NCBI GenBank assembly: GCA_963580285.1
Contig: CAUZLF010000718.1
Span: 62,001-126,000 of the forward strand
Direction of reading: 5' to 3'
Source: Lucinisca nassula
Lineage: Eukaryota > Mollusca > Bivalvia > Lucinida > Lucinidae
Length of the DNA: 64,000 bases
Shown piece after piece: positions 425 to 46,700 of this stretch; the first letter of the stretch is position 1; each line of letters opens with the position of its first letter. A program made the position numbers and the translations under genes. The notes beneath the pieces were generated by a model. The model did not search any database. It was given only the letters and a program-made list of their open reading frames with translations, and was not told the DNA's origin.

Positions 425-2615
425 GTAAGCTATAGGCATTCAGGCCTCTTTGTAACACTGGTCAATATAACAGTACAGCTGAAAGATGGAGAATAAAAAC
501 CTAAAAGGTTGCCTTTTGAAAAAAAAAACACATAAAAGAACGAAAATCGGAGAATGTGTTTTATTGAGTCTATTCATACACACTAATATAGTTTGCAAGG
601 TTGTATACGGCCCCCCTAGCACCGGCTTAAGCGATATTCGATTTTCAAAGTAACCAGAATGGGCGCAACGATCCCAAAGGAAAAGAAAATATATGTAAAA
701 TCTGCACTATGATGAAGCACGGGGAGACCTTTTACAGCCGCCACACCAGCTGCAGTGAGGTAAAATTTGAACCCTTTTGAATTAGTCACACACGTTTGTG
801 AATATCAGCCAATCAGATTACGTGATCTGATGTTTTCTTTCAAGGTTACAAACTAAATGACAAACAGTGTAGATCCTGATCAGATGGCTTCAGATGCCAT
901 TTGATCTGGATCTACAATGTTTGCAATGGTAGGGATTGTCGGGAACAGCAGGATAAGGGTTAAAACTGTTGAATCACAAGGCCTCAATCCCACTGAGCAC
1001 CAAATATTGAGTCTTTGAGCAAGATTCTCACACTTTATCCACATTGCTTAGTACTGGTTTTCTTCCTGGAATTACTGCCACAAATGCGTCAGAGGGCATA
1101 GGCAGTATTTGGATATAGAAAGAGTTAGCCAGCTTTTTTAGTTATATCTGCAGAAAAATTATTAATTTGGGAAGGTTGAAATGGTCTACCCCCTAATACA
1201 TTGGGGCAGGTAAAAATTACCATTCAATTGCTAGGACTTGTTAGCATAATGATCATATAGAGGATCTTACATGAGTGTACAAGTATTATTGAATTTATTG
1301 AACGAGTTGAGGAAAAGGGATAAAATGTGAGGCTTTGCCGAGCATTTTATCCCTTTTCTTCAACAAGTTTAATAAATTCAAAAGCCTCGCATTTTATCCC
1401 ATTTCCTCAACTCGTTTAATAAATTCAATAATACATGAGCATGAATGTAAGATTCTATTTATCATATGACATTTAAAGGTGCATTATTGAGCTACCGGGT
1501 CTCAATTTTTTTTCTGGTTTTTATCTTCAATGCATACTCCGTTGTCAAGTGTACACTTTTGGAGCCAAATACAGCTTCAGAACTTTGTGAAAATTGTCGT
1601 TTTCATTTGTGTTTACCCTTGGCTCTGAACATGTGTTCATAATTTCTGTTCTAAAAATAAATCTGTCACTTTACACATACATGGAGGCAGTATCGTCTCT
1701 GAGTGTAGTTACTTATAGCATGGTATTCAGTGTCATATTTTTTTCCGATTCAGGCATGGCCTAAGCAAACAAGGCCAAAAATGAACGTCGCATAACGTCA
1801 TATAGGGGGATTCTATTTTTGTCACGAACTAAAAATAGATCTAACTAGTGTTCGAAACCTAGTTAGGGAATCCCTCTCAAACTCGTTTACCGGTCATCAT
1901 AATTGTTCGCATTTTTGCATAAAATGCATTCATTTGTATTGTTTTAAAGAAAAATACCGGCTATATGTATTTTATTTTAGGAAGCATTTTTTCCGGATAG
2001 CTCAATAATGCACCTTTAAAACGCATTTAATTTACGACTTTTATACAAAAATGTCAATATTCCGCCATTAGTAAACGTGACGTCATTAAGGACGTTGTAC
2101 TTGTATCGTTACATGTCGTGTCTAACTACATGTAATTTGCATATTTAATCCACTACTGGATTACAGAATTTATTATATGACGTTATTTCATTCTCAGATG
2201 CAACGTCTTTTGGCACAACCCCTTGCCCATTGTTAATGGGCAACAGAGACATCTGGGCTAAGGTTTTTCAAAGCATTGCTAGCTTAACCCATTTTCCATT
2301 GCTATATTTTGGACAAGTCCATTTGTCATATAAGGGATGTCAGGCCTATTTTTTTTTTTTTTTTATTCTATTTTTGACAGAAAATTCTGTAAGCAAAGAG
2401 TGCTGGCCCTGATCAGACACCGCATTTTGCGGCATCTGATCTGGGCCTGCACTTTTTGCCAAGGTACCCCTTTAGGGGTTTCCCGCAAGCAAAGGGTTAA
2501 TAAACTCCATAGTGGAGTATAAAATCCAAAACTCGGGTATTTTTGCTGACAAAAATATGAACAGCATTTGCATAAGCAAAAGCAACTATTTTTTTCAGCA
2601 AAAATTTCCGTCAAC

Positions 2616-2650
<35 letters not shown>

Positions 2651-5600
2651 GTTTCGGTTTTACGGCCCTTTCAAGATTATTTCACTCATATCGAGCCGAT
2701 CGTTAATCAGAGGTGGGCGAAAACCGGAGTACCCGGAGAAACACCACCTGACCTATACCGACATTCGATATAACGACAAAACTTGTTATAGCGACAATTT
2801 CAATGAAACATATTATCCTTAGCTCAAGATGATATGATAAATAATTCAAGAATTATTGTAATTCTTTAATACTCCAAGAAACAATTTTATTGGATATTTG
2901 TTAGAATCACCATGGCGAGGCGATTATAACAAATGTACAAAACATTCGTTTCTTGGAGTAATTAAGGGAGAAAGTCCTTTATTACCAATTAGACTACTTC
3001 TAATTGGAATTCTTTATAACGGCAAATTCGCTATAGCGGCTAATTGTTAAGGAACGAATACTGTCGTTTAAACGAGATTCCTGTATAGTATAACTGTCAT
3101 ATTAACTGATGAAATGCTTAACAATATAACTAACAACAGTCACGGTTACTTTTAAACAACTGGACCCTAAGGTATTTGACATCAGTTTTATCAAGGGAGA
3201 CAACAATCAGGGTCCAGTTGATCAAAACATTGTGAGCTAAACGAGCTTGTTAATGGTCAAATTGTGAACTGTTCTAGTAAGTACAGGATCTAAAACTCTG
3301 GTGTTTTTGCTGAAAAAAAATGTGAGCAGCTTTTGCATTTGCAAAAGCTGCTCATATTTTTTCTGCAAAAAATATTAGTATATTTGCCATATTTAATAAT
3401 AAAAGTTTTATGTTAACTAACGATATTGTTAGTTTTGAACAAATGGCTGCAGGATTTCTTCTATAAACTGAGTCCCTTCTTAAAAGGGGTCTACTCTCAA
3501 AAGAAAGAATTTGCTCTTGAGCAAATTCTTTCTTTTAAGAGTTGACCCCTATAGAGAGGGGAGACAAAATTATTTTTGGAAAAGTTACCTCCCCTGAAGG
3601 TGATTCCATATCCCTTATTGTGGTGATGTCTTGTTGCCTAGGTGACTGCAGTGCCTCTACAATGTGGGACAACTTTGAGTGGATTAACCTTCCAAGAAAT
3701 GACGACCCACTGGAGCCCCAATATACCAATGCTGATTATGTACACCATCTTAATCCACATGCTAAAATTATTTTCATATTGAGGAACCCTATCACAAGGT
3801 AAGTTATAAACCCATAAGATGCCAATCACAACAATTGCCATCTGCTTTGTCGTCTGTTTGTTACTTTAAAAGTATTTTTTGCAAACAGAGTGAACCCAGA
3901 TCAGACTGCTCCTCTAGGTGGTCTGATCAGGGTCAACACTGTTTGCCTATATGCAAAAATATGTTTGAAAACGTTTGCAAGAATATATGCAGTAGATGAT
4001 AGAAACAGATTTTTAGGTACAGTTTTTCATGGCATCTTAAAAAGTTAAAATTCTTTTGTAAAGCTAAATTGCTCTGTCTCCAGTAGTGATCAGTCACACA
4101 TATATTAAGATAACACACAAATGCAAAATAATATTTTCTTTCATGTCCCCAAAAATGACCTTTATCTGATGAAAATTACGGATATTTTTCTTAATCCTAA
4201 TTCAAATATAGACTGTGGGTAGGGCTGGCTAATCGGGGCTGAAAAGATAATCGAATATCAATCCTGTCATTGCGATCGAAAATCGATTAGTAATCGCTAA
4301 GACTTTTGTCATTATTTTACCTGTCTGGCTTTCTGTCTGAGCATGACTCTTACCATATGTTGCAATTTACCATATGTATATTTGAACAGACAAGCCTGAG
4401 CAGTGTAGACCCAGATGAGACGCCGCATAATGCGGCGTCGCATCAGGGTCTGTACTGTTTGCCACTCATCCAGCTATTTTAGGCATACCTTTGGGTAGTA
4501 AATTGTACCTATCAAGTAATCGATTAAAAGCAAATCAGAAATGATAATCACTTTTGTGGAATTTATCGGTCGATTAATCGATTATACGATTAATCGTGGC
4601 AGCCTTAACTGTGGGTGCTTATTAGACATTCCTAATTGAGGATAACAAGTACTCACAATCTATGCTTTTAGGCTTAACTAAGACATATAATGAATACCAA
4701 TGTAAATGCAACCTTCACTATATAAAGTGTGGTTTACAAAGGTATTCAGCTCATGGACTTGATAAAAGAATCTGTCCTGTGTTTAAGGGGGAGATAGAAA
4801 AATCTATCCCAAGGATCCCTGTTCAGCATCAAGAGTTATGACCTCTTGACACCAAGCTATCACTCTTAGGCAATGGTAAGGTAATGTCATACCTGTAACT
4901 CTTGTTCTTAAAGGCATTTATTCTTGATTATTGGGGACTATCATTTCATTACATAATATTATGTAGCCCTCAGAGCTGACTGAAGAGAAGACCTCTGTCT
5001 TCAACAGGTAAGGGGCCTCCGTGGGGAAAATCAATAAATTACTTACTTTTGACTGGTGTACATTATTGATTTTCCTCTTAAGTGCCTCAGTCAGGGTATT
5101 CAACTAGAGCTAGAGTTGACCCCTATTGACATGGGAGACAAAAATACTTTTGCAGGAGTTGCCTCCCCTGAAGTTGAATCCATCTACTTAAGAAATGGAT
5201 TTGAAAATTTGGGTTGATGCTAGAACTGATGCAAATGGTGAGGGATTGACAAATGACCAAACAAATGGATGAAAAAGTGGACTCATATACTGAGCATCAT
5301 GCTAAAAGCAGGTGTGACAAAAAAGTTTTTTTTTTTATTTTTTTTGACAATAATATCTATACATTTTTGGGATCTATTATTAAACCATGTTATATCCAAA
5401 GCAATGATATAACAAACAGTGTTATAAAGAGGTTAAGGCCACAGGTCAAAATTTTGTATGAGTAGGAAACCCTTGTCACAAGGAAGCTACATGCCAAATA
5501 TGAAGGCACTATCTCAAATGGTTCAAAAGTTATGACCAATATTACGGTATTTTTTTCTTTAAAGTTAGGGTGTTCGAACTAATTGGTCACATACCGTAGG

Positions 5601-25700: not shown

Positions 25701-28700
25701 ACTGTCACACAGATGTATTATCGTAAGGCCTCCTGAAAGTTACTGTAATGATCCTAAGTATTTGGACAGATAGGCCTAAGCAAACAGTGCAGACCCAGAT
25801 CAGACTGCTCCTTCAGGAGCAGTCTGATCAGGGTCTACACTGTTTGTCAGTGCAGACCCAGATTGGACTGCTCCTTCAGGAGCAGTCTGACCAGGGTCTA
25901 CACTGTTTGTCATCCCGTCTACAAGTTTTGGACTCCTTGATGGCTTGTGAAACAAATTTGTTAAAATTTTAGGAGAATTACAGATAGTCCTCAAGGTGTC
26001 AGATTTTTTAGGATTTTTACGGTAATATTTTCCCTTAACCTATAAACAGTGCAACTTCCATGGCTCAAACACTGATGGCATTGTTTTGAACTCCTTTAGA
26101 TCCTAGGAAAAAATCCCATGACTGCAGATGTTAATGTACTTGATATAATTACACCACAATCTCTTTATAACACTATAAATCAATGCCTCGTTAGTTAAAC
26201 ATCATGTTTCATGTATATCCAAACATGAAATAGAATTTTTTGGCTAAAAAAATGTGAGTCACTTTTGCGTATCCTACTGCTACTCACATATTTTCAGCAA
26301 AAAATAACAAAATTTTAGATTTTGTACTTGCTATAGCATTTAACACTTTGACCATTAACAAGCTTCTTAAGCTTTTGAGGCTTTGAACAACTGGACCCTG
26401 ATCTGGCCCATTGATTAACCCTCAAAAGCTCAAACTACCATTGTTTAAAAAAAAACTTCATGGTTCTGAACTTCTGAAGGTGTTCAAGCTTTGAAGTTTC
26501 ACTGTATAATACATAGGATCTTCCAACTTGGGGCAACATCATATATTCTAGTTTAAGGGGTGCCTGGTAAATTTTAATAGTTTCAATAGATATAGTGAAA
26601 ATTCAGCTATTAAGATTACATAAAATTAAGGCAAATTATGCATTTAAAAGCATATTTAGAAGGTTTCAGGTACATTTTCTTTGTTTTCTCTACATCCAGG
26701 GTGCTCTAGTGGGAGACCACCTTTGGGACTGTTCAAATGGTGGTCTTAAATATCACTTTTAAAAAGTCCCAAAGCGGGTCTTAGTATAGGAATTTTACTG
26801 GATTGTGCACTTCAAGCAAGCAGTATAGACCCAGATCGGACACTATCATGGACAGAGTCTGATCTGGGTCTACAATGTTTCCTTACATCCCTCAGTGGGG
26901 ACATTATTCATTACCGTATGTATTCAAACAGATAGGCCTGAGCAAATATGGACTGAGATGTCATTTCATCTCAGTATCAGGTAAAAGTTCCACAAAATTG
27001 GAAGCAGTAGCTCCAAAATGATCTAAACAGTGTCGGTGGGGATGTAAAAACCACAACTCAAACACAAACAAACATTACCTGTAATTGCAGCAAAATGGTA
27101 GAGCCCACACTGAACATCGATCACTGAACATCGATTACCGTATGTATTCAAACAGATAGGCCTGAGCAAATATGGACTGAGATGTCATTTCATCTCAGTA
27201 TCAGGTAAAAGTTCCACAAAATTGGAAGCAGTAGCTCCAAAATGATCTAAACAGTGTCGGTGGGGATGTAAAAACCACAACTCAAACACAAACAAACATT
27301 ACCTGTAATTGCAGCAAAATGGTAGAGCCCACACTGAACATCGATCACTGTTGTGTTGGGTTGTAGCTCATTGCGCCCGAACAGTGTTCTGTTAAGTTGT
27401 ACAGGTTTCTCTGAAAAACTTCCCTTTGGTCCAGTTCCCAGTATACCATAGCCCCAGGTGTACACCTCTCCATGTTCTGAAAAAAACATTTTCTCTGAAG
27501 ATTTGTTTGTTTGGTTTGGGGTTTAACATCCCTGTCAACACTGTTAAGTCATTTTGGAGAGGTTGATTCCAATTTTGTGGGCATTTTACTCGACACAGAG
27601 ATGAAATGACATCTCAAGCCCTGTCGCCCAATGAATGGACGGTCCGACTCGCACCGCTTTGCCTGGGCAGGCTTACACCCTCTAAGCAGTTTACCAGTAA
27701 CCGTGTGCTGCCTGTTTCAGCTCTGCATGGAAGCATCATGCAGCCCATCTATTTCTTCCAGCCCCGATGGGCGGGAGCCGCTTCTCTGAAGAAAACACAT
27801 GCATGTGTTCATCAACGGATTCATCATCAACGGGTTTTTTTGTTAACGTGCAGGTACAGGGGCAGCGTCCACATAGGTGGGCCCCTTTCCAGGTAGCTGG
27901 CTTGCTGCATGCATGGCAGATCTTACACCAGATCTCCAGGCTTGTCTATCATCAGGATCGATAGCAGAGAGCTTCCATTCTCTGCAATCTCTTTCTGTTA
28001 GCTGCTTCCAGGTCATCTTGGGCCTTCCTGGCCCTCGCTTTCCACCTACCTGAATGTCACAGGCAGTCTTGACTGCACCATTGGAGCGTTCCACATGTCC
28101 ATACCAGCAAAGTCTTCTCTCTTTCAGGATGAGGTCCAGGTCCTCAATGCCAAGACGCTCAAGTAACTCACTGGACCTTATGTTGACAGTGTCCTGTGGC
28201 TTGACATTGCAGATCTGTCTGATCATTGCCCTGTCATTTCGCTGTAGACGTTGGAGGTTTGGCTTTGTCAATGGCCATGTCTCACTGGCATGGAGCATTG
28301 CGCTCCGCACGCAAGAGCTATACACACGGCCACATGTCTTGAACGAGAGGTGGCGGGAAGAGAGAACTGGTGGCAACTCCTTGAATTTCTTCCAGGCTGT
28401 TTTCACACGTGATGTAGTTGAAAGGTCGCAACCACCCGCTGCAGAGAGCATATCACCTAGGCAGCAGAAGGAAGCTACGGCCTCCAGCTTGTCAGATCCG
28501 ACTTGGACTTCCCTCTGTGGTCTGCCATCTAAGGGGCGTGCAGTTCCTTGGCACCGTGTACACCTGTAATCAGGGTCCTCTATCAAGCGTTTGAGCCCAC
28601 TGCATTTCTTGTGCACCCAGAACTTTCAGACATTACAAAAGATACTGTTGCTGCCCACTCCAGTGCGACATACAGCGCATGGGAACTGGCCTGTACTCTT

Positions 28701-31700
28701 CAAGAGGTCCAGACCTGTACCACAGATCATGATCTTTGTCTTTCCTGTATTCACTCTCAGCCCTTTCACCTCCATTGCGTCTTTCCAAGTTAAGAGCCTC
28801 CTGACACATTCCTCAAGGGATTCAGCTATGATGACAAGGTCATCAGCATACAGGTTCTCCCAGGGGACTCCAGAGCGGAACTCGCATAACAAGGCTTCAA
28901 GCCAAGGTTGAGTGGCAAATTCCACCCCCGGTATTTACCAGTGGCATTTACCGGCCTGGAAAATATGCCCAAAGTGGCAAATATGGCAAATATGGCAAAT
29001 ATGATTTTGGTCTTAAAATATTTCAGAAATCTCGACCAAGTCAGAAATTGAGACAATAAGCAGGTAAAAATAAAATCACAGGTATGCATTTAGCTGTGCC
29101 ATTGACACTAATATTGATCCTAAGTTTTTGGATAGTCAGTAGACAGGCCTCTTAAAGATTGTTCAGATCAGAACAGTCTGATCAGGTCCTTGACTGATTT
29201 GTCTGTTTACTTTCTCAACAACATGCTTTAACCTTTATCCTGCTCTTGGCGACAAGCCCTATCTTTGCAAACAGTGTAGATCCAGATCAGATGGCTTCTG
29301 AAGGATCTACACTGTTTGACATTCAGTTTATGAATATGTAGAAATTAATTGTAAACTGATTGGTTCAAAGTCAGAAATGGGTGTGGCTTAATTGAATATT
29401 CAGCAAGTTTGACACTATCCAAAGTTGCAAGGAGTTTTACATAAATTGTCAATTTGACATTACTTAACAACAAAATTAAGAACATGTTTATTTAGCTCTG
29501 CCAGTGACACTTGGTATATTGACCCTTAATCTTTGGATAGACACTAGACAGATAGAATTACTAAAACAACAAATTTAAGAAAATGTTTATTTAAAGTAGG
29601 TAGAGCATAGCCAGAGGCAAAGATGAAAACAAGAAGATGTCATAATTTGTTATTTGTTTATATAACTTAGATATTTAGTCTAGGTGGAATTGAAAAGAGG
29701 TATCTTAGGTGTGAGCTGAGTGATTCCAGGACATTTGCCCCCCAGGACATTTGCCCCCCAATGAATTAATCTAAAAATGGACATTTGCCCCCCATTTAAA
29801 AATAAATTACTCCATCTGTATAAATAACAATGTGCTGTAAACGGCAACCCCTACCTTTACAAGCAGTATAGATCCAGATCAAAACTAAATGTTAGGCAAC
29901 AAATTACTCCATCTATATAAATATTAATCCCATAATGACCTGCTGTTAAGGAGAACCCTGATTGTAGGTAAAAATGCCAGACGTAAAAATGCCATATACA
30001 AAAATGCCAGAGGTAAAAACACCATAGGTAAAAATGCCAGAGGCTACGTGGTAAAAATGCCATAGGTAAAAATGCCAGAGGTAAAAATGCCAGAGGAGAA
30101 AAATATTTTGGTTCTTATTCCATCTGATCAGGATCTACACTATTTGTCATCCCTTCTGCAACTTTTGGGCCCTTTGCAAGTTATCACGTTAACCGTTTGC
30201 AAGTTCATCACGTTAGCAAGTCTGTGTTTTATGAGCATTTATAAGAAAAAAATATCACCCATTTCCTTATTCACTCAGATCATAGTCTACACTGTTTGCA
30301 GTTCCTTCTGCACCTTTTGGGCTTTTTGCATGTTCTACTTTCGAAAGGGCTATCTGTGGTATACATGGGAACATATTTGTTCTTACTTTTGCTTAACGAC
30401 AGGTTACGGGCACATGTTAGGACCGTCTCATTGATGCTGTTCTACTGGGCATAGGTAACCTATGCTTAGAGCATTAATAAGAAAAATACCCATTTCCATT
30501 TCACCCATTTCCTTATTCCTCAGTGAGGCTGTTTAAATGAGTTCCCATAATCACAGAATATTGATTGTGGAAACTTGTTACAACTGCCTTATAGAGGCTG
30601 CTCTAATGAATACCCACAATTTATATTTCTGCACAAAACATAGATTGCGTAAGGCTGTTTTAATGAGTACCCATAATCACAGAACATAGATTGTGGAAAC
30701 TTGCTACAACCGCCTCAGTGTGGCTGTTTTAATGAGTTCCCATAATCACATAATATAGATTGTGGAAACTTGTTAGAACTGCCTCACAGAGGCTGCTTTA
30801 ATGAATACCCACAATCTATGTTTCTGTGCACAAATCAGGAAACTAAATTTACATTTTTATCAACACGATCACTTTTCAAAACGAATGGTATGCCCAACTG
30901 CATTCAGAAAGTTTTCTATGTTGCGTTCACCATTGTTGTATTCAACACACAAACGTCGAAGTCTTGACTGTAGAGTCACATACTTTCTGTGTTTTTTTCT
31001 TGGTTGCAGATTTCCAATTTATCACACTTTCTTTCATCTAAAAAACAATATCTAAAGAACATCAATTAATCCCATTTTAATGGTATAATTATGATTATCA
31101 CACTAAAATCAAAACCAAATCAAAAAATGTAAATTAATTGCATTAATTTACAGCTCTGTATCAAACTCTTTTGCTCCAATATTCTATGCATTCATAGGTT
31201 TTTTTTTTTTTTTTTTTTTGTTAAATAAAACTTTGTCAGTCTGAAAATTATCCAGTTTCCATATAAAAACTTTCACAAAAGTAGCAGAAGGGATGACAAA
31301 CAGTGTAGATCCTGATCAGATAGAATAAGAATCAAAATATTTTTTACCTCTGGTATTTTTGTATATGGCATTTTTACCTATGGCATTTTTACCAGGTAGC
31401 CTCTGGCATTTTTACCTATGACATTTTTACCTCTGGCATTTTTGTATATGGCATTTTTACCTCTGGCATTTTTACCGCACACCAGAACCCTACCTTAGAA
31501 AGCAGTATAGATCCAGACCAGATGCCATCTGATGAGGATCTATACTGTTTGTCATGCAGTTTGTTAAGTTAACAAAAACATACCAAGAATGTGATGGTTA
31601 ATAGTCAACAATTGGAGATGCTTAATTTATTCAGCAGGATAAGGGTTAAGCAAGTCAGCTACAGAACCATATATTGAGTTTATGCCTCACTTAGGGTCCA

Positions 31701-34700
31701 ATGTCAGATGCCTATTTCTGCAACAGTAAGTAATTGAAATGATCTTGAATGGGCTGTAAAACCATAACCAAAACGCTATCATGTAAATTATGTAGCTATA
31801 TACAAGTCTGTATAATGAATATCCTCGCAAGTTAATGGTAATGCAAGACTTAGAGATAATACAAAAATATGGAATGGTAGATGTATCAAGCAGCGGGTTG
31901 GGGGGCAAATGTCCCTTTCTGAAATAAGCAGTGGGGGGCAAATGTCCACCTATAAAATAAGCGAATGTAGGACGATTTGGCCAGCGGACGATTTGGCCCG
32001 GACGATTTGGCCTAGGACAATTTGGCCAGCCAAAAATATTGGGTAGGACAATTTGGCCAGATTAATATAATGACCAGGTTAAACTGAAAATTTAATGTTT
32101 TAGGTTTGTTTTTAATATACAGTAATGTTTGAATATGTGGAAGGAACATTTTAAAGAAGATTTTAAACATTTAGATATTTTTTGTTGTCGTTTTTAAACT
32201 ATAACTTTTGGCCTGAGATGGTTTCTGGTCAACTCGTACCTAAGTCAACTCGTACCTTAGTCAACTCGTACCCAAATTTGGTCAACTCGTACCTTAGTCA
32301 ACTCGTACCTAAGTCAACTCGTACCTTAGTAAAAATAAAATTTGTTTTGGAGTAAGTTTGGCTTATATACATATATATACAGGTCAACTTTATGGTCTAT
32401 GCAGACTCCTGATCCTTTTCCCGACGATGAAGACGCTACATAGTGTGTGCATGACGCCATTACACACGTGCGCCAAATGGCGCCTTTCATGTGTATGACC
32501 CCCATATCCCTTTAGCCAGACATAATTTATGGGTGCTCGTTAGAACTATCCCTGTGGGGCAGCTCTAACGAGTGCCAACAATCTATGCTCCAGAGGGATG
32601 TGATTGGTACATAACACCATGCTCAACATAAGACGAACTTCATATGTAAATGAAAATAACGTGAAAAATATAATTGTAGAACTTACATTTCATGCTCAGT
32701 TGCAAATAAAATGTAGTTATACAATTATAATTTGTTCCCATATATGCTCAAAACATAAATGTTGGCTAACATAAATGTTGCATATTCCTTATTACTGTTC
32801 TTTACGACAACACGCCCGTGCAATATAGTGCGTTTTTCACATCTCCAAAATGGCAATTTTTCTTACGAAAATCCGTGTTTTTTTTTTGTTTTTTTTTGTT
32901 TCTTATTTATACTTCAGACATAGGCTGTGATCTTTAGTTGGAACGACTCTAACGAGTACCCTCAACCTATGTATTGGAGCATAAATAAAGAAAGATAATG
33001 TATATCCCCGTAAAACCGAGTTTCTCTATATAAAGTGAGGTTTAGGGGTGTGCCCATTGCACGGACAAAACCTGTTACATGCCGGCGAGTATAAACACAG
33101 CGGGATATACAGGTAGCACAATAAAAATAAATTCAGTTATTTATATAATTTTATTGCTTAAATTATAAACATTTGTTATACCGTTTAACTAACAAACTCT
33201 TAAATAAAAACAATCATCACGTATGCAAGCCTATATGAATTTGTCCCTCCTAAAACCCACTTTTATATATAAATAGTAAAACTGGGATTTAGTTTTAAGT
33301 TTTGTCAGAACAAAAACAGCCGCTCGCCGGCAAAATTAAAGCAATTAAAACAGTTTAAAGCAATTAAAACAGTCTTTAATGAAGGACGATTAGATTAAAC
33401 TAGTACCGATAATCGTTTTTTACACCCACATTAATCGGTACACGATTAACTAAAGTGTTAACTAAATTAACCCAAATGGAATCTTCCATCTTATATATTT
33501 CGAAATTTAGGGGTGTCAGGTTGTGTTTTCAAACAGCGTCCGCCCTGATCAGACGACGCCGCGTTCTGCGGCGTCTGATCTGGGCATTCAGTGTTTGACT
33601 ACCCAAATGGATTTTGCCATCTTATATATTTCGAAATTTAGGGGTGTCAGGTTGTGTTTTCTTCAAAATTATTCGGGAAGTGGCTAAACTTTTTCAAACA
33701 TCGTAGGCCCTGATCATACGCCGCCACGTTCTGTAGCGTCTGATCTGGGCCTGCAGTGTTTGACAAGGCATCCCTTTGTGGGTTTCTGATACTGAATGGG
33801 TTAAAAGTGAATAATAATAAAATAATAAAAATAATGATAATAATAATAATAACAATAATAAAAATAATAATAACTAGAGCAGGTTGATGGCGCGCCATCG
33901 CATATCCCCGCGTTCTGCGGCGTCGGATCTGGGCCTGCAGTGTTTGCGATCGCAAATCCCCGCGCTGTGAAAACCATGTTACAATAAAAGGACCCAACGT
34001 ACTTCTTTCTGGCCTCCGGTGAACTCAAGACATGTCTCGGGGCAAGTTATAACCCATTTCAACTATTGTTCGGCAAAAAAATAAAGTACCCCACCTACCC
34101 CTGGGGTACGAGTTGACCAAAATAGGTACGAGTTGACTAGGGGGTACGAGTTGACCAAAGAACGGGTACGAGTTGACCAAAAACAGGTACGAGTTGACTC
34201 AGGTACGAGTTGACTTAGGTACGAGTTGACCAGTTACCCCTGAGATATTCTTTAGGAGCAAATTAATAAAAATGGTTAACTATAATCCCCAAACACAAAA
34301 ATACAATAAAATAATAATAATAATAAATAAATAAATTTAATGGTTTTATTAAATTGGCTGGAAAACAAGATTAATTATATTTTCTTGTATTCATGGTTAA
34401 TTGGCTAACTGATTTGCTGACTGGTATTGGTTCCTTGCTTTCTTAATTAGCTATTCCACACTTATTTATTTGGTTTTGTTTGGTTCAAGAATGTGCACCG
34501 CACTGTTTAACCACTTACACTTAGGGGGACTGATCTGCTCAATGTGACCTAAATAGTGTTGACTGGGCTCTGATACTAAAAATGTGTAGAAAATATGTAA
34601 TGATGTGTGATAAAAATATGTTGACAAATAAAGAAACTGCTCAAACTTTTAAAGCAATTTCCTCTTATGTCAGCATTTGATTTTCACTCATCAAAGCCAA

Positions 34701-37700
34701 GAAATGACAGATGAAATCACTGAAAAAAACATGAGATATTAGCCAAATGAAAAAAAAAATGTGAATGAAATGACTGATAGAATAAGCATTGGTAAAACCG
34801 CCAGGAGAAATTAATTTGGCCAAATTGTCCTACCCGGTAATTTTGGCTGGCCAAATTGTCCTAGGCCGAATTGTCAGGGCCAAATCGTCCGCTGGCCAAA
34901 TTGTCCGCCCACCAAAATAAGCACTGGGGGGCAGATGTCCATACCAAAAATAAGCTCTGGGGGGGCAAATGTCCAGGTCACATTTTCAACTGGGGGGCAA
35001 ATGTCCATTTTTTGATTAAGTCATTGGGGGCAAACGTCCTGGGGGGCTAACGTCCGGAGACCGAACTGAGTAGTTGTATGGCTTTAAGCTATGTATACCC
35101 TAGAAGTTAGAGCATTACTGTTCATTAAATGTCCTGAAATTTAGCTAAACACATCTAAAGCAAACTAAAGCAATCAACTTTGATTTGATAAAGTCTTTCA
35201 TTCAAGCTTCGTCCGAAAATCATATCCCCTCCAAAACTAGCAGGTCTGTATCTTCAATTCCTTGGATCACACCAGAAATAAGAAGAAAAATTCGGAGGAG
35301 AAATAAGATTCATGCTAAGGCAAAAAAGTCGGGAAGTGGTAAACTCAGAGCAAAATTTGAAAACTTGAGACGAGAAATTAAAAATGACATCAAAAATCAG
35401 CATGATCAGTATGTAAATAACTTGGTAGGTGATGTAAAGGCGAATCCCAGAGACTTCTACAGATATATCAATAGCCAGAAGAAAGATAGGCAAGGTATCC
35501 CACCCCTTAATAAAAGAGGAGGGAACGGGGTCGCTGAATCGGACTCTGAAAGGGCAGAGGAATTGGTTGGTCAATTCAATGATGCATTTAATAAAACTGA
35601 GTTCAACGAGGTTCCATTGACTGGAAGATCGGCCCCTTTCATGGAAAATATTGTTGTATCCTCTGCGGGAGTGATCAAATTACTTAAAGGCTTGAACCCT
35701 TCTAAAGCTTTAGGGCCTGATGAGCTTCATCCTAGAGTCCTGAAGGAACTAGCAAACGAGTTAGGTCCAGTTTTTGCTCATCTTTTCCAACAATCTCTCG
35801 ATACGGGTGAAATTCCCAAAGAATGGCTCCTAGCGAACATCTGTCCACTTTTCAAAAAAGGGGACAGGGCTCTTGCTCGTAATTATCGCCCGGTGTCACT
35901 GACCTGTGTTCTATGTAAATTGCTTGAACACATAGTCTGCTCAAACATCATGGCCCACTTGGATGAACATAAACTTTTGTCAGACAGACAACATGCATTT
36001 AGGAAAAGGCATAGTTGCGAAACTCAGTTGAGCACGGTTATTAATGATTGGGCAAAAATCCTGGACAAAGGGGGGCAGTTGGACACATTTATTCTGGACT
36101 TTGAGAAGGCTTTTGACACCCCTCCTCATGAACTACTTAAATCCAAATTATTTGGTTATGGAATTGGTGGGAAGACTCTTAAATGGATAGATTCCTTCCT
36201 TTGCTACAGAAAACAGCGTGTTGTTGTTAATGGTGAATCTTCAGTATGGGCGCCAGTTTTGTCTGGAGTCCCACAAGGGACCGTTCTTGGTCCTCTATTG
36301 TTCTCCCTGTACATCAATGATATTTCCACTGATATTGACTCAGAAATAAGACTGTTCGCAGATGACTGTGTTTGTTACCGGGAAATTAGAGATACAGATG
36401 ACTCACTGAAACTTCAGGCTGACATAGATAGATTAGGATGCTGGGCCAGAAAATGGGGCATGAGATTTCAACCAGTTAAATGCAATATTATGCAGATAAC
36501 AAGGAAGAGATCTAATAAAGTTGAGGCTTCTTACACCTTAGAGGGAACGGTCCTCGAAAATGTGAATTCCATTAAATACCTTGGTGTGACAATCACTCAC
36601 GATTTGAGATGGAATACACACATTAGCAATATGTGTACAAAGGCGAATAGAACGCTTGGTTTCCTGAGGCGAAATCTTCATCAGTGTCCTCAGGATGTGA
36701 AAGAAACAGCATACAGGGGACTTGTTCGCCCAATCTTGGAATATGGTAGTTGCATCTGGGACCCAAGCGGAGTGGTCCTAAATGAAGAAATTGAAAAAGT
36801 TCAGAATAGAGCTGCTAGATTTGTAACTGGAAATTATTGCTTTGAAACTGGGAGCATGACTGGAATTCTAGGAAAATTAAGATGGGAGTCTCTAAAGAAA
36901 AGGAGAAGAGACAGTAGGCTCATACTCTTATACAAAGGTCTAAAGGGTGCTGCCAGCATTCCAACAGATGACCTTGTTCCCCCAGCTAGGCATTGTAGAA
37001 AACACCATTCAATGACGTTTCAGACCCTTACTGCAAGAACGGATATTTATAAAGAATCGTTTTTCCCCCGAACCATTAGAGATTGGAATGCCCTTCCCGA
37101 TTCTATTATTTTGACGGCTGAAGGTGCTGAGGATTGTGTAGCTAAGTTTACATCTTTGGTCAGAGCTAGGGACTAACTTCCCATATCACAGGTCCTGGTG
37201 TATGAATGTCATTTGACGTGTCACCAGTAACAATTCTGATTCTGATTCTGACTACAAGTCACCATGGTGAAGCTAAAAGATCCAATCTGGAACTTCTTTG
37301 CTGTTGCTGAACAAGACAACAAAACCAGTGTCAGCTGCATTGACTGCAAAGCGGTTGTCAGTGCTAATGAGATGACCATCAATTGAATTTGCCATATTTG
37401 CCATAAATGCCATAAATGCCGGTAAATGCCAGTGGCATGGAAAATATGATATTTGCCGGCATTTTTGCAACCTTGCTTCAAGCACAATGATGAAAAGCAG
37501 TGGGCTGAGAACAGAGCCTTGATGAACACCCACCTTCACCTCGAATTCTTCACTGTAACCATCACCAACACGGACACGGTTCCGAGCATTAGCATACATC
37601 CCTTGGACCAGTTTCACAATCCACTCGTCCACTCCAAGTTTTCTTAGTGCCCACCAGATGACTTTCCGAGGCACTCGATCAAATGCCTTCTTCAGGTCTA

Positions 37701-43700: not shown

Positions 43701-46700
43701 GGTTTCATTGGGTGACGGGGCTTGAGATGTCATTTCATCTCAATGTCAGGTAAAAGTCCCACAAAATTGGAAGCAACGTCTCCAAAATGACCTTTACAGT
43801 GTTGACGGGGACGTTAAACTTCAAATCAAACAAAACAAACAAACAATGCTCATGCAGCTATTTGTGTGCATATACTTGTAAACTCCGTTCAGAAAATCTG
43901 AATCATCGATTTTTTCGTTTCTCGCTTTTAGTCTTCATTTTAGCCCATACATCACTATGGGAAAGTTTTAGACCTCACCCTCCGCCGATTTCTCCAACAA
44001 GTCGTATGCCTATGCGACAGCTAGGAAAGGTTGTGATTATTTGGAGAAAATTGCAAAATCTATATTTTCTTTCACAGACTAAGACATTCTGACAGATTCG
44101 ACACACCCTTTTAAACCATATATAGAAGTGGTTACTGCTCTTGTACATTATAAGGGCCTCTATGTTTTATTTGCACGATCACTCCATGGAAAATCATTAG
44201 CTGTGACACCACATCTGATATCAGTATAATTCTTTTCGACGACTGCTGACAGCACTCCCCGTTCAAAGTGAGCCTCTATCCGAGTGCGTGAGTGTTTAAG
44301 TTTTACGTCCCAACAACAGTTAAGGTCATACGGAGTCGGGACCTCGGTGTAAAGATTTATCCGAAAGTCTGGAGAAGCCCGGGATTGATCCTGCGACCCC
44401 TGGTTTACAAGGCGAGTTGCGTAACCACCACACCACGGAGGCTTCTAGTGAGCCTCTATCTAGCCATTCGAATATAAGGTGTGTCGCAATTGCATATCTA
44501 TTTATAAAGTGCGTCACTTGGATTTGAATATTTATTATTTTACCTGACAATCATCGTCAAATGGACTTAGTCTGTGCTCTCATTTCTTTGTTTTGCAATT
44601 TTCTCCAAATAATTACAACCTTTCCTAGCTGTCGCAGAGACATACGACTTGCTGGAGAAATCGGCGGAGGGTGAGGTCTAAAACTTTCTCATAGTGATGT
44701 ATGGGCTAAAATGAGTATTAAAAGGAAGAAACGAAAAAATCGATGATTCAGATTTTCTGAACGGAGTTTAGTAACAACTTACACATACAACTGAATTATA
44801 ATTGGGTCCCGCCCATAAGGGCTTAGAGAAAAAGATACGGCTTGCAGAGCTGAAACCGGCCTCACACGAGTACTGATAAACCACTTAGGAAGGCTAAGCT
44901 GTCCAGACAAAGTGGTATGAACCGTCCATGCATTTTCATTGGGCAACAGGACTTTAGGTGTCATTTCATCTTGATATTGGGTAAAAGTACCACTAAATTG
45001 GAAATAACATCTCCAAAATGACCAAAATAGTGTTGACGGGGACGTTGGTTGGTTGATTTGAGGTTTAACGTCCCCGTCAACACTGTATAGGTCATTTTGG
45101 AGACGTTGCTTCCAGTTTTATGGGACTTTTACCCAACATTGAGATGAAAATACATCTCAAGCCCTGTCGCCCAATGAAACCAAAAGGGTTTGTAAGCATG
45201 GACGGTCCGACCCACACTTCTTTGCCTGGGTAGGCTTAGTTGACAGGGACGTTAAACATCAATTCAAATGAGCAAACAACGGAATTATTATGTCTGTTAC
45301 TGAAATCTAAGTTTTGATCAGATCTTTTCTATATTTTTGTTTGAGTTGTAACGTTCCCGTCAACACTGTATAGGTCATTTTAGAGATGTTGCTTCCAATT
45401 ATGTGAGACTTTTACCCAACACTGAGATGATATGACATCTCAAGCTCTGTCGCCCAATGAAACCAATAGGGTTTATATGCATGGACGGTCCAACTCGCAT
45501 CGCTCCTGGGCGTGCTTAGGACCTCTAAGCGGTTTACCAGTACTCATGTGTGGTCCGTTTCATCATGCAGCCCAATCTATTTCTTCAAGCCCCACTATTT
45601 TTATCTGGATTCCTGCATTGTTAATACATCATGTCAACAAGTCAGTACAGCGAAGACCCCCCCCCCCCCACCTCCTCTAAACCCCATTCTATATAGAGAA
45701 AACTGGGTTTACAAGGCTGTACATTATTTCACTTATTTCTGCTCTGAGTCATAGGTTGTGGGTACTCGTTAGAACTGACTCAATGAGGCAGTTATAACGA
45801 GCGCCCACAACATATGTTTGCAGTATATTAAAAAAAAGGAAAATATCATTCATGGGTTTTCATCAGAAAAGTGGCCATTTTGGAGATGTGAAAAATGCAC
45901 TATGTCGCACAGGTGTGTTATCGTAATGAGCAGTTCAATGTGCAATGAAAATTAATCTAACAAACTTTCAATCTCTCTTTGGCAGAACACACAACTGATT
46001 TCTTGCAATAACACATTTTGCAGGCTAATGAACCAGCCATAAACATTGCTGGGAGTTAATGTCTTTATTATAGCTCATTAAACTATGAGATTCTGTCAAT
46101 CATTTGTAGTTCCACTGGACTACCAAGCTCTCCCTTTAAGCTCTGGTGGCAATTTTGTTCAACCAAACAGAACCATTTAAGCAATTTTGGTAAAGGGGCA
46201 TCAAAGGAACACTTTTGGAAAATTATTTTGAAATCGGGCCACATACCTGTAATTTTTCTTTAACTGTATGAGGGAGATTTTCAATTGTGATGAGGGAGAT
46301 GTAAAGACTATATAGGGAAATTTTCTGTTCAAATGAGGGAGACTCCAAAATTTTACTAAAATTTAGCATAAATTGGGCAAAAATTAGCATCAAAATGAGG
46401 GAGTGTCCCTCATCAGCTCCTTCCTGATGAGGGAGGTATCACAGGCATGGGACATTGGCCTAGAAGGAGATGTCATTTAAAGTTTTTTTCTTCTATTTTT
46501 AGCACTGGTGGTCATTCTGAGCAACTGAGCGGAGCCATATAGCACTTTTAGTAACAGGGCATTAGAGTAACATTTGTGTGAAATTATTTTGAAATCAGGC
46601 CATTGGCCTAGGAGGAGGTGTCGTTTAAAAGTTTTTCTTTTTTTAGCTCTGGCAGCCATTTGTTCAACCTAGCTTAACCATTTCAGCAATTTTGGAAAAG

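What the first reader, a model, noticed from the sequence alone, without database searches (positions are those of the whole stretch)
29722..35062. Four nested modular inverted-repeat elements (A-D) that look like one undescribed superfamily
Seen: elements A (29722-35062), D (29960-31483), B (31963-34913) and C (32220-34238) each have terminal arms built from many loose copies of one private word: ggacatttgcccccc (A), aggtaaaaatgcc (D), aggacgatttggcc (B) and ggtcaactcgtacc (C). The words are unrelated, yet the extreme ends all start G, mostly G(G/A)T, e.g. gattgtagg/ggtgtgcgg (D), gaatgtagg/ggtgggcgg (B), ggtttctgg/ggtaactgg (C) and gattccagg/ggtctccgg (A). Exact 8 bp target duplications flank C and D, B has a 9 bp match and A an imperfect one. 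No transposase is visible. Known: foldback-type elements have modular arms, but I know of no family set with this exact combination. Inference: one transposase mobilises elements whose arm words are free to change, perhaps because arms evolve by slippage and conversion.
Basis: partly seen in the sequence, partly recalled or inferred. Interest (0 to 1): 0.88.

Follow-up and report, generated by a model that had tools for sequence, protein, structure and literature searches.

The report
Nested foldback transposons with word-array arms
Four non-coding jumping-gene families, each ended by many copies of its own short DNA word, are nested inside one another; they are real and abundant, and are most likely new foldback-type relatives of the known Mutator transposons rather than a new kind.

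Summary
The four elements are real. Other copies in the same 2.93 Gb genome have the same ends, and copies of A and B that lack the nested insertions show a single target copy for D in A, B in A and C in B. First-look candidates number 847-2058 per family. Target duplications are 9 bp in A (6 of 7) and B (16 of 16), 8 bp in C (17 of 19), and 8 or 9 bp in D with the same ends, so the four fit one 8-9 bp class. One C copy contains a 3,569 bp coding element of the same build (arms of its own word, exact 9 bp duplication) with a Mutator-type (MULE) transposase and an Ulp1/PHD-finger exon, resembling published Rehavkus. I read A-D as non-autonomous MULE foldback elements, not an undescribed superfamily. 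Among the copies read, none with the words of A-D encodes a transposase, so that link rests on anatomy. A 56%-identical transposase relative keeps the coding element's word core, which favours words tied to a transposase lineage over freely changing words.

The parts
29722..35062 (.). Element A: ends GATTCCAGG / GGTCTCCGG, word GGACATTTGCCCCCC
   Evidence: other genome copies with the same ends and 9 bp duplications
29713..29721 (+). Target copy left of A, gagctgagt
   Evidence: right copy differs at one base
35063..35071 (+). Target copy right of A, gaactgagt
29729..29793 (+). A left-arm words (29729, 29745, 29779)
31900..31947 (-). A right-arm words lying before B's insertion point
   Evidence: the same arm uninterrupted in L003
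34926..35055 (-). A right-arm words lying after B's insertion point
29960..31483 (.). Element D, inserted in A's interior: ends GATTGTAGG / GGTGTGCGG, word GGTAAAAATGCC mostly at 15 bp spacing
   Evidence: empty site in other A copies
29952..29959 (+). Target copy left of D, agaaccct
31484..31491 (+). Target copy right of D, agaaccct
29967..30091 (+). D left word array
31341..31476 (-). D right word array
31963..34913 (.). Element B, inserted in A's right arm: ends GAATGTAGG / GGTGGGCGG, word GGACGATTTGGCC
   Evidence: empty site in other A copies
31954..31962 (+). Target copy left of B, aaaataagc
34914..34922 (+). Target copy right of B, aaaataagc
31970..32058 (+). B left word array
34818..34906 (-). 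B right word array
32220..34238 (.). Element C, inserted in B's interior: ends GGTTTCTGG / GGTAACTGG, word GGTCAACTCGTACC
   Evidence: empty site in other B copies
32212..32219 (+). Target copy left of C, cctgagat
34239..34246 (+). Target copy right of C, cctgagat
32227..32325 (+). C left word array
34105..34231 (-). C right word array

Best explanation
A, B, C and D are four non-autonomous DNA-transposon families of foldback build that move by cut and paste. Their extreme ends (a cap of about 9 bp starting with G) mark the cleavage site, and the repeated private word in each arm is a string of transposase-binding sites; a staggered cut gives 8-9 bp target duplications. The enzyme is most likely a Mutator-superfamily (MULE), Rehavkus-like transposase, with different words served by different members of a diverse MULE set in this genome. 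Shown: elements, ends, duplications, empty sites for D, B and C, no long open frame in the window's elements, and a similarly built coding MULE in the same genome. Inferred: that MULE enzymes move A-D, that words are binding sites, and that each word pairs with its own enzyme.
For: Duplications in genome copies with both ends found: A 9 bp in 6 of 7 (4 exact, 2 with one mismatch; the seventh, L002, has a changed right end and 8 bp); B 9 bp in 16 of 16 (11 exact, 5 with one mismatch; L014 and L026 share flanks, so 15 independent); C 8 bp exact in 17 of 19; D 8 bp exact in 7, 9 bp exact in 2, none in 1 of 10. D shows that one set of ends gives both lengths. Empty sites with one target copy for D in A, B in A and C in B. 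Coding element L081:1177-4745: duplication tatcaatag 9 of 9, ends GCTGGTTAC / GGTCGTTAC, 46 copies of CGGAACA in either orientation inside and 0 in the other 6,431 bases of the locus. In an alignment of its transposase with 19 relatives, D221 is invariant and D284, C304, H307 and E397 are at least 90% conserved; 9 of the 20 match PF10551 MULE at E<=0.001. Its 3' exon passes the Pfam cut-offs for PHD and Ulp1. Word spacing of 32-34 bp in A's arms recurs in the right arm of L081. 17 of 96 listed genome matches to the transposase are full length, stop-free and 100% identical.
Against: No coding element carrying the words of A, B, C or D was seen; tblastn of the L081 transposase and its 95 relatives against the window and the loci then held found no match to it inside A-D elements other than the coding insertion itself. 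The L081 transposase itself misses the PF10551 cut-off (E 0.025, 15.4 of 27.6 bits). Its word lacks the GG...CC form and its caps differ from those of A-D. Upstream pieces of eleven further transposase matches were read; only L090 shows a word array, although several pieces lie in coding sequence and none is known to reach an element end. C is 8 bp while A and B are 9 bp, so C could belong to another superfamily.
Confidence: 0.62

Rival explanations
1. One reading: one transposase recognises the short G-starting caps and moves all four families; the arm words are not recognised specifically and change freely by slippage and conversion.
For: Caps are more alike between some families than words: A, B, D and family E (L015) fit GA(A/T)T..AGG at one end and GGT...CGG at the other; C and family F do not. 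Beyond the shared GG...CC frame, the interiors of the four words A-D are not more alike than shuffled ones (583 of 3000 shuffles reach the score, 621 of 3000).
Against: With families E and F added, word interiors are more alike than shuffled: A-E 46 of 3000, A-F 3 of 3000 with the F word first chosen and 5 of 3000 with its commonest form. A 56%-identical transposase relative keeps the word core CGGAACA. Galileo G-subfamily THAP bound the K arm more weakly and the N arm not at all, though it did bind the D. ananassae arm.
Confidence: 0.15
2. P-superfamily foldback elements, like Galileo of Drosophila, with a THAP-type transposase.
For: Galileo has long internally repetitive arms with multiple transposase-binding sites (abstract). 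The 8 bp duplications of C would suit a P-type element (recalled, not from a call).
Against: 9 bp duplications in A and B in 22 of 23 copies; the one similarly built coding element found is a MULE with 9 bp. P-type transposases were not searched for.
Confidence: 0.1
3. The four are not one group: C (8 bp, caps GGTTTCTGG / GGTAACTGG) and A/B/D (GAWT / GGT caps, 8-9 bp) belong to different superfamilies that converged on word-array arms.
For: C is 8 bp in 17 of 19, A and B 9 bp in 22 of 23; independent origin of the foldback structure from different lineages has been suggested (passage in PMC4079207).
Against: D has both lengths with the same ends, and family E with A's exact left cap GATTCCAGG has 8 bp (one copy).
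Confidence: 0.12
4. Not transposons: minisatellites or assembly artefacts that happen to lie as inverted clusters.
For: Word arrays alone look like minisatellites.
Against: Many dispersed copies with constant ends, flanking duplications and empty sites.
Confidence: 0.01

Closest known systems
Rehavkus (outgroup or member of the Mutator superfamily)
   Same: For the coding element L081: 9 bp duplication, PHD finger, minisatellite before the 3' end. For A-D: 8-9 bp duplication and word-array arms only.
   Different: Hosts given are Arthropoda and Annelida (PMC6446971, passages; section 8). Here the minisatellite lies in an apparent intron and repeats the arm word; A-D are non-coding. No tree was made.
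Foldback-type elements assigned to the Mutator superfamily (such as Tetris)
   Same: Modular inverted arms, no conserved ORF, 8-10 bp duplications (Tetris: PMC4079207, passages). Tm1 was seen only as a title and start of abstract in a listing.
   Different: Here several families with different words and partly similar caps coexist; the words are short (12-15 bp), set mostly at 14-23 bp or at 30-34 bp spacing.
Galileo (P superfamily)
   Same: Internally repetitive arms carrying multiple binding sites of the transposase's DNA-binding domain (PMC3688188, abstract).
   Different: Different transposase superfamily from the coding element found here; P-type transposases were not searched for.
Phantom and other animal MULEs
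   Same: MULE transposase, 8-10 bp duplications; mini-satellite after the transposase ORF noted for aphids.
   Different: No phylogenetic placement was made here.

Membership tests
Foldback-type TIR transposon (structural class), for A-D | Long inverted arms built of short repeated modules | tested here: met
Foldback-type TIR transposon (structural class), for A-D | Target duplication and clean empty sites | tested here: met
   duplications; empty sites for D, B and C; none found for A itself
Mutator superfamily (MULE), for A-D | 8-11 bp target duplication (range given in PMC6446971) | tested here: met
   9 bp in A and B, 8 in C, 8-9 in D
Mutator superfamily (MULE), for A-D | MULE transposase encoded by a copy with the same arms | tested here: inconclusive
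   none seen among the loci held; only the best 40 candidates per family were scored and only part of those were fetched
Mutator superfamily (MULE), for L081 element | DDE transposase of PF10551 type | tested here: met
   by its relatives: 9 of 20 aligned members match PF10551 at E<=0.001, conserved D, D, C..H, E; its own match is weak and below the cut-off (E 0.025)
Rehavkus, for L081 element | 9 bp target duplication | tested here: met
   tatcaatag twice, one copy examined
Rehavkus, for L081 element | PHD finger in the coding part | tested here: met
   PF00628 31.7 bits, cut-off 24
Rehavkus, for L081 element | Minisatellite before the 3' end | tested here: met
   tandem repeats at L081:3365-3864
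Rehavkus, for L081 element | Transposase groups with Rehavkus in a tree | not testable with these tools
   no Rehavkus reference sequence at hand
Galileo / P superfamily, for A-D | P-type transposase with THAP domain in a copy with the same arms | not tested
   no P-type search was run
Named Repbase/Dfam family covering A-D | Sequence match to a library consensus | not testable with these tools
   neither library is available here

The most novel reading that the evidence does not exclude
A set of MULE-type transposon families in which the cleavage cap is conserved while the repeated binding word is swapped from family to family, so that one genome holds a natural series of re-addressed but otherwise equivalent transposon ends, possibly served by overlapping transposases.
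Probability: 0.2. Interest if true: 0.7.

Novelty: new member of a known kind. Interest (0 to 1): 0.42.

Why it matters
The families are numerous, and the best-scored B and C copies are mostly 92-99% identical to the query pieces, so arm words, caps and transposases can be compared within one genome: a direct test of how foldback transposons change their binding sites. The similarly built coding element, with many identical copies, gives an enzyme to test.

Tried and rejected
Rejected: minisatellite or artefact (empty sites). Rejected: C as a coding element; in the reference C copy L062 the longest stop-to-stop frame is 102 residues, and the window's whole region has no listed ORF above 120 aa. 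Of the five C regions without a right end in their 3.4 kb (L053, L055, L056, L058, L060), L056 proved to hold the coding insertion, L055 and L058 hold other insertions, L053's right end is changed or missing, and L060, read on to 10 kb as L082, shows no right arm. Not pursued: Merlin and P transposases. Led nowhere: the viral-contig scan with the transposase (11 pattern hits, none confirmed); the phage-collection search with the A end (no match); upstream pieces L083-L089 and L091-L093: repeated coding-like units, an OTU-like stretch by eye in L085, or no array (read; the repeat count covered L086-L093 only). The arm search with L081:1170-1420 did not complete. Literature checks on Rehavkus with PHD/Ulp1 failed, so the statement that I saw no description of these families rests on the listings.

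Bias notes: genome copies are among the best-scoring 40 of 847-2058 candidates per family, not a random sample. In one search I dropped before counting: window B 33377-34913 and window D 26099-31483 (chance ends), and C rows that repeat a copy on the other strand or start at an inner word; the script itself dropped copies with identical flanks, such as L027. L007 of family A was counted because one search missed its damaged arm. Copies for which no second end was found (for instance L004 and L005 of A, L010, L020 and L028 of B, L074 and L079 of D) are not in the counts. L075, L077 and L078 of D were counted with the right cap GATGTGCGG. The word of F first used was my choice of a rarer form; one search repeats the test with its commonest form. 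H (L036) was picked for likeness to C's word and is left out of the test quoted. With all letters shuffled, even A-D alone exceed every shuffle (0 of 3000 reach the score), which reflects the shared GG...CC frame.
Full report
Observation. The window holds four inverted-arm elements at the stated places. With up to 2 mismatches the words of A, B and C are found only inside the finding and are absent or nearly absent from five letter shuffles; the D word is less specific (13 of 43 window hits in D's arms, 4-7 per shuffle) but forms two dense inverted clusters. A is interrupted twice: D sits in its interior and B inside its right arm; C sits in B. No listed ORF overlapping the region exceeds 120 aa.

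Copies elsewhere. The window lies in an unnamed 2.926 Gb genome, G000:C645:62001-126000. First-look candidates were 2058 for A, 2054 for B, 1457 for C and 847 for D, of which 40 each were scored. Apart from the window itself, scored B matches that cover most of the query are 92-98% identical to it and scored C matches 97-99%.

Boundaries. Duplication lengths: A 9 bp in 6 of 7 copies with both ends (L007, the others; 4 exact, 2 with one mismatch), and 8 bp in L002, which has a changed right end. B 9 bp in 16 of 16 (11 exact, 5 with one mismatch; L014 and L026 share flanks). C 8 bp exact in 17 of 19; L043, a composite of two C copies, and L050 lack one. D 8 bp exact in 7, 9 bp exact in 2 and none in 1 of 10. 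So 8 and 9 bp occur with the same D ends, and the difference between C and A/B need not mean different enzymes.

Empty sites. Probes of 60 bases, made by joining the flanks with one target copy, were aligned to the held loci (match 1, mismatch -1, so 60 is perfect). The best score for D in A was 56 (three A copies, target copy differing by one base), for B in A 58, for C in B 60 in three loci (L013, L023, L028); A itself had no site scoring 40 or more. For the coding element in L081 the best other C copies scored 53, with tataaatag in place of tatcaatag.

Further families. A scan of the held loci met two more families by structure: E (L015:1304-2951, word GGACAAAATCCCCCC, duplication gaacaata, left cap GATTCCAGG as in A) and F (L055:500-2197, commonest word form AGTCGTTTCGCCCCC, duplication cataacac). 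L036 holds an array of GGTCATTTCGTACC, a near relative of C's word. Keeping the two outer bases at each side and shuffling interiors, A-D show no likeness beyond chance (583 and 621 of 3000), A-E a weak one (46 of 3000), A-F a clear one (3 or 5 of 3000, by the form taken for F). 'Unrelated words' is therefore too strong for the wider set.

A coding element. One C copy, L081 (duplication atggtagc), contains an insertion at 1177-4745 (3,569 bp) flanked by tatcaatag twice, with ends GCTGGTTACTAAAACACGGAA and GGTCGTTACTAAAACACGGAA. It holds 46 copies of CGGAACA in either orientation, against 0 in the other 6,431 bases of the locus. It has a 452-residue open frame with 95 relatives at E<=0.001, many carrying PF10551, and MULE-type catalytic residues; its own PF10551 match is only E 0.025. 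A 3' exon has an Ulp1-like stretch and a PHD finger above the Pfam cut-offs. Between them lies a tandem-repeat stretch rich in the arm word, bounded by sequences that look like splice sites (splice sites by eye). Of 96 listed genome matches to the frame, 17 span residues 1-452 without stops at 100% identity (93 of 329 candidates scored), so the element probably amplified recently. Its right-arm spacing of 32-34 bp equals that of A's arms.

Relation to A-D. The coding element and A-D share build (cap, inverted word arrays), G-starting ends with GGT at one side, and 8-9 bp duplications. They do not share a word, and the coding word lacks the GG...CC form. I read upstream pieces of eleven other transposase matches; one, L090 (56% identical transposase over residues 101-286), shows an array whose core is again CGGAACA, nine copies. 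The other ten show no such array, but several lie in coding sequence and they may not reach the ends, so they say little. The one informative comparison suggests that the word is kept within a transposase lineage.

Mechanism. Most likely a MULE transposase cleaves at the cap and is gathered by the word array; non-coding copies keep only these parts. Published work on Galileo found multiple binding sites of the transposase's THAP domain in such arms and suggested that they supply specificity (PMC3688188, abstract). Its G-subfamily domain bound the K arm more weakly, the N arm not at all, but the D. ananassae arm significantly (section 2.5). For A-D this is inference.

Known kinds. PMC6446971 (passages; section 8) describes Rehavkus with a 9 bp duplication, PHD finger and a minisatellite before the 3' TIR, from arthropods and annelids. 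[quoted passage not shown] PMC10294476 (passages) reports MULEs in all genomes it analysed; PMC13359780 (passages) counts Rehavkus with MULEs. I saw no description of the families here in the listings; Repbase and Dfam were not available, and five later literature searches failed.

Verdict. Real, well delimited and numerous; new families of a known kind. The claim of a new superfamily is not supported; the idea of swapped words on shared caps stays open and is the interesting part.

Noticed in passing
L081:1177-4745 (G000:C20:88385128-88388696): MULE element with Ulp1/PHD exon and an apparent intron rich in its own arm word; 17 full-length stop-free matches at 100% identity in the genome.
   Followed up: partly
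L015:1304-2951 and L055:500-2197: Two further word-array families with 8 bp duplications, one hosting a B copy, the other inserted in a C copy.
   Followed up: partly
L090 (G000:C2:105854500-105855400): Word array with core CGGAACA upstream of a 56%-identical transposase relative.
   Followed up: partly
L083, L084, L085, L087, L088, L091: Upstream of other transposase relatives lie repeated coding-like units (L083, L084, L087, L088, L091) or an OTU-like open stretch (L085); by eye, not scanned.
   Followed up: no
L014, L026, L027 (C19, 73.7-74.3 Mb): Three B copies share the same flanks, so they look like duplicates of one insertion.
   Followed up: no
window 31282-31326 and 31522-31566: D's interior and A's interior share an inverted stretch of 45 bases (80%), similar by eye to stretches elsewhere such as around 860-900.
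   Followed up: no
window 43730-45152: Another inverted-repeat pair about 1.4 kb apart with matching 8-mers at its flanks.
   Followed up: no
window 36037-36498: Stretch similar to a protein carrying PF00078 (reverse transcriptase), 45% over 154 residues.
   Followed up: no
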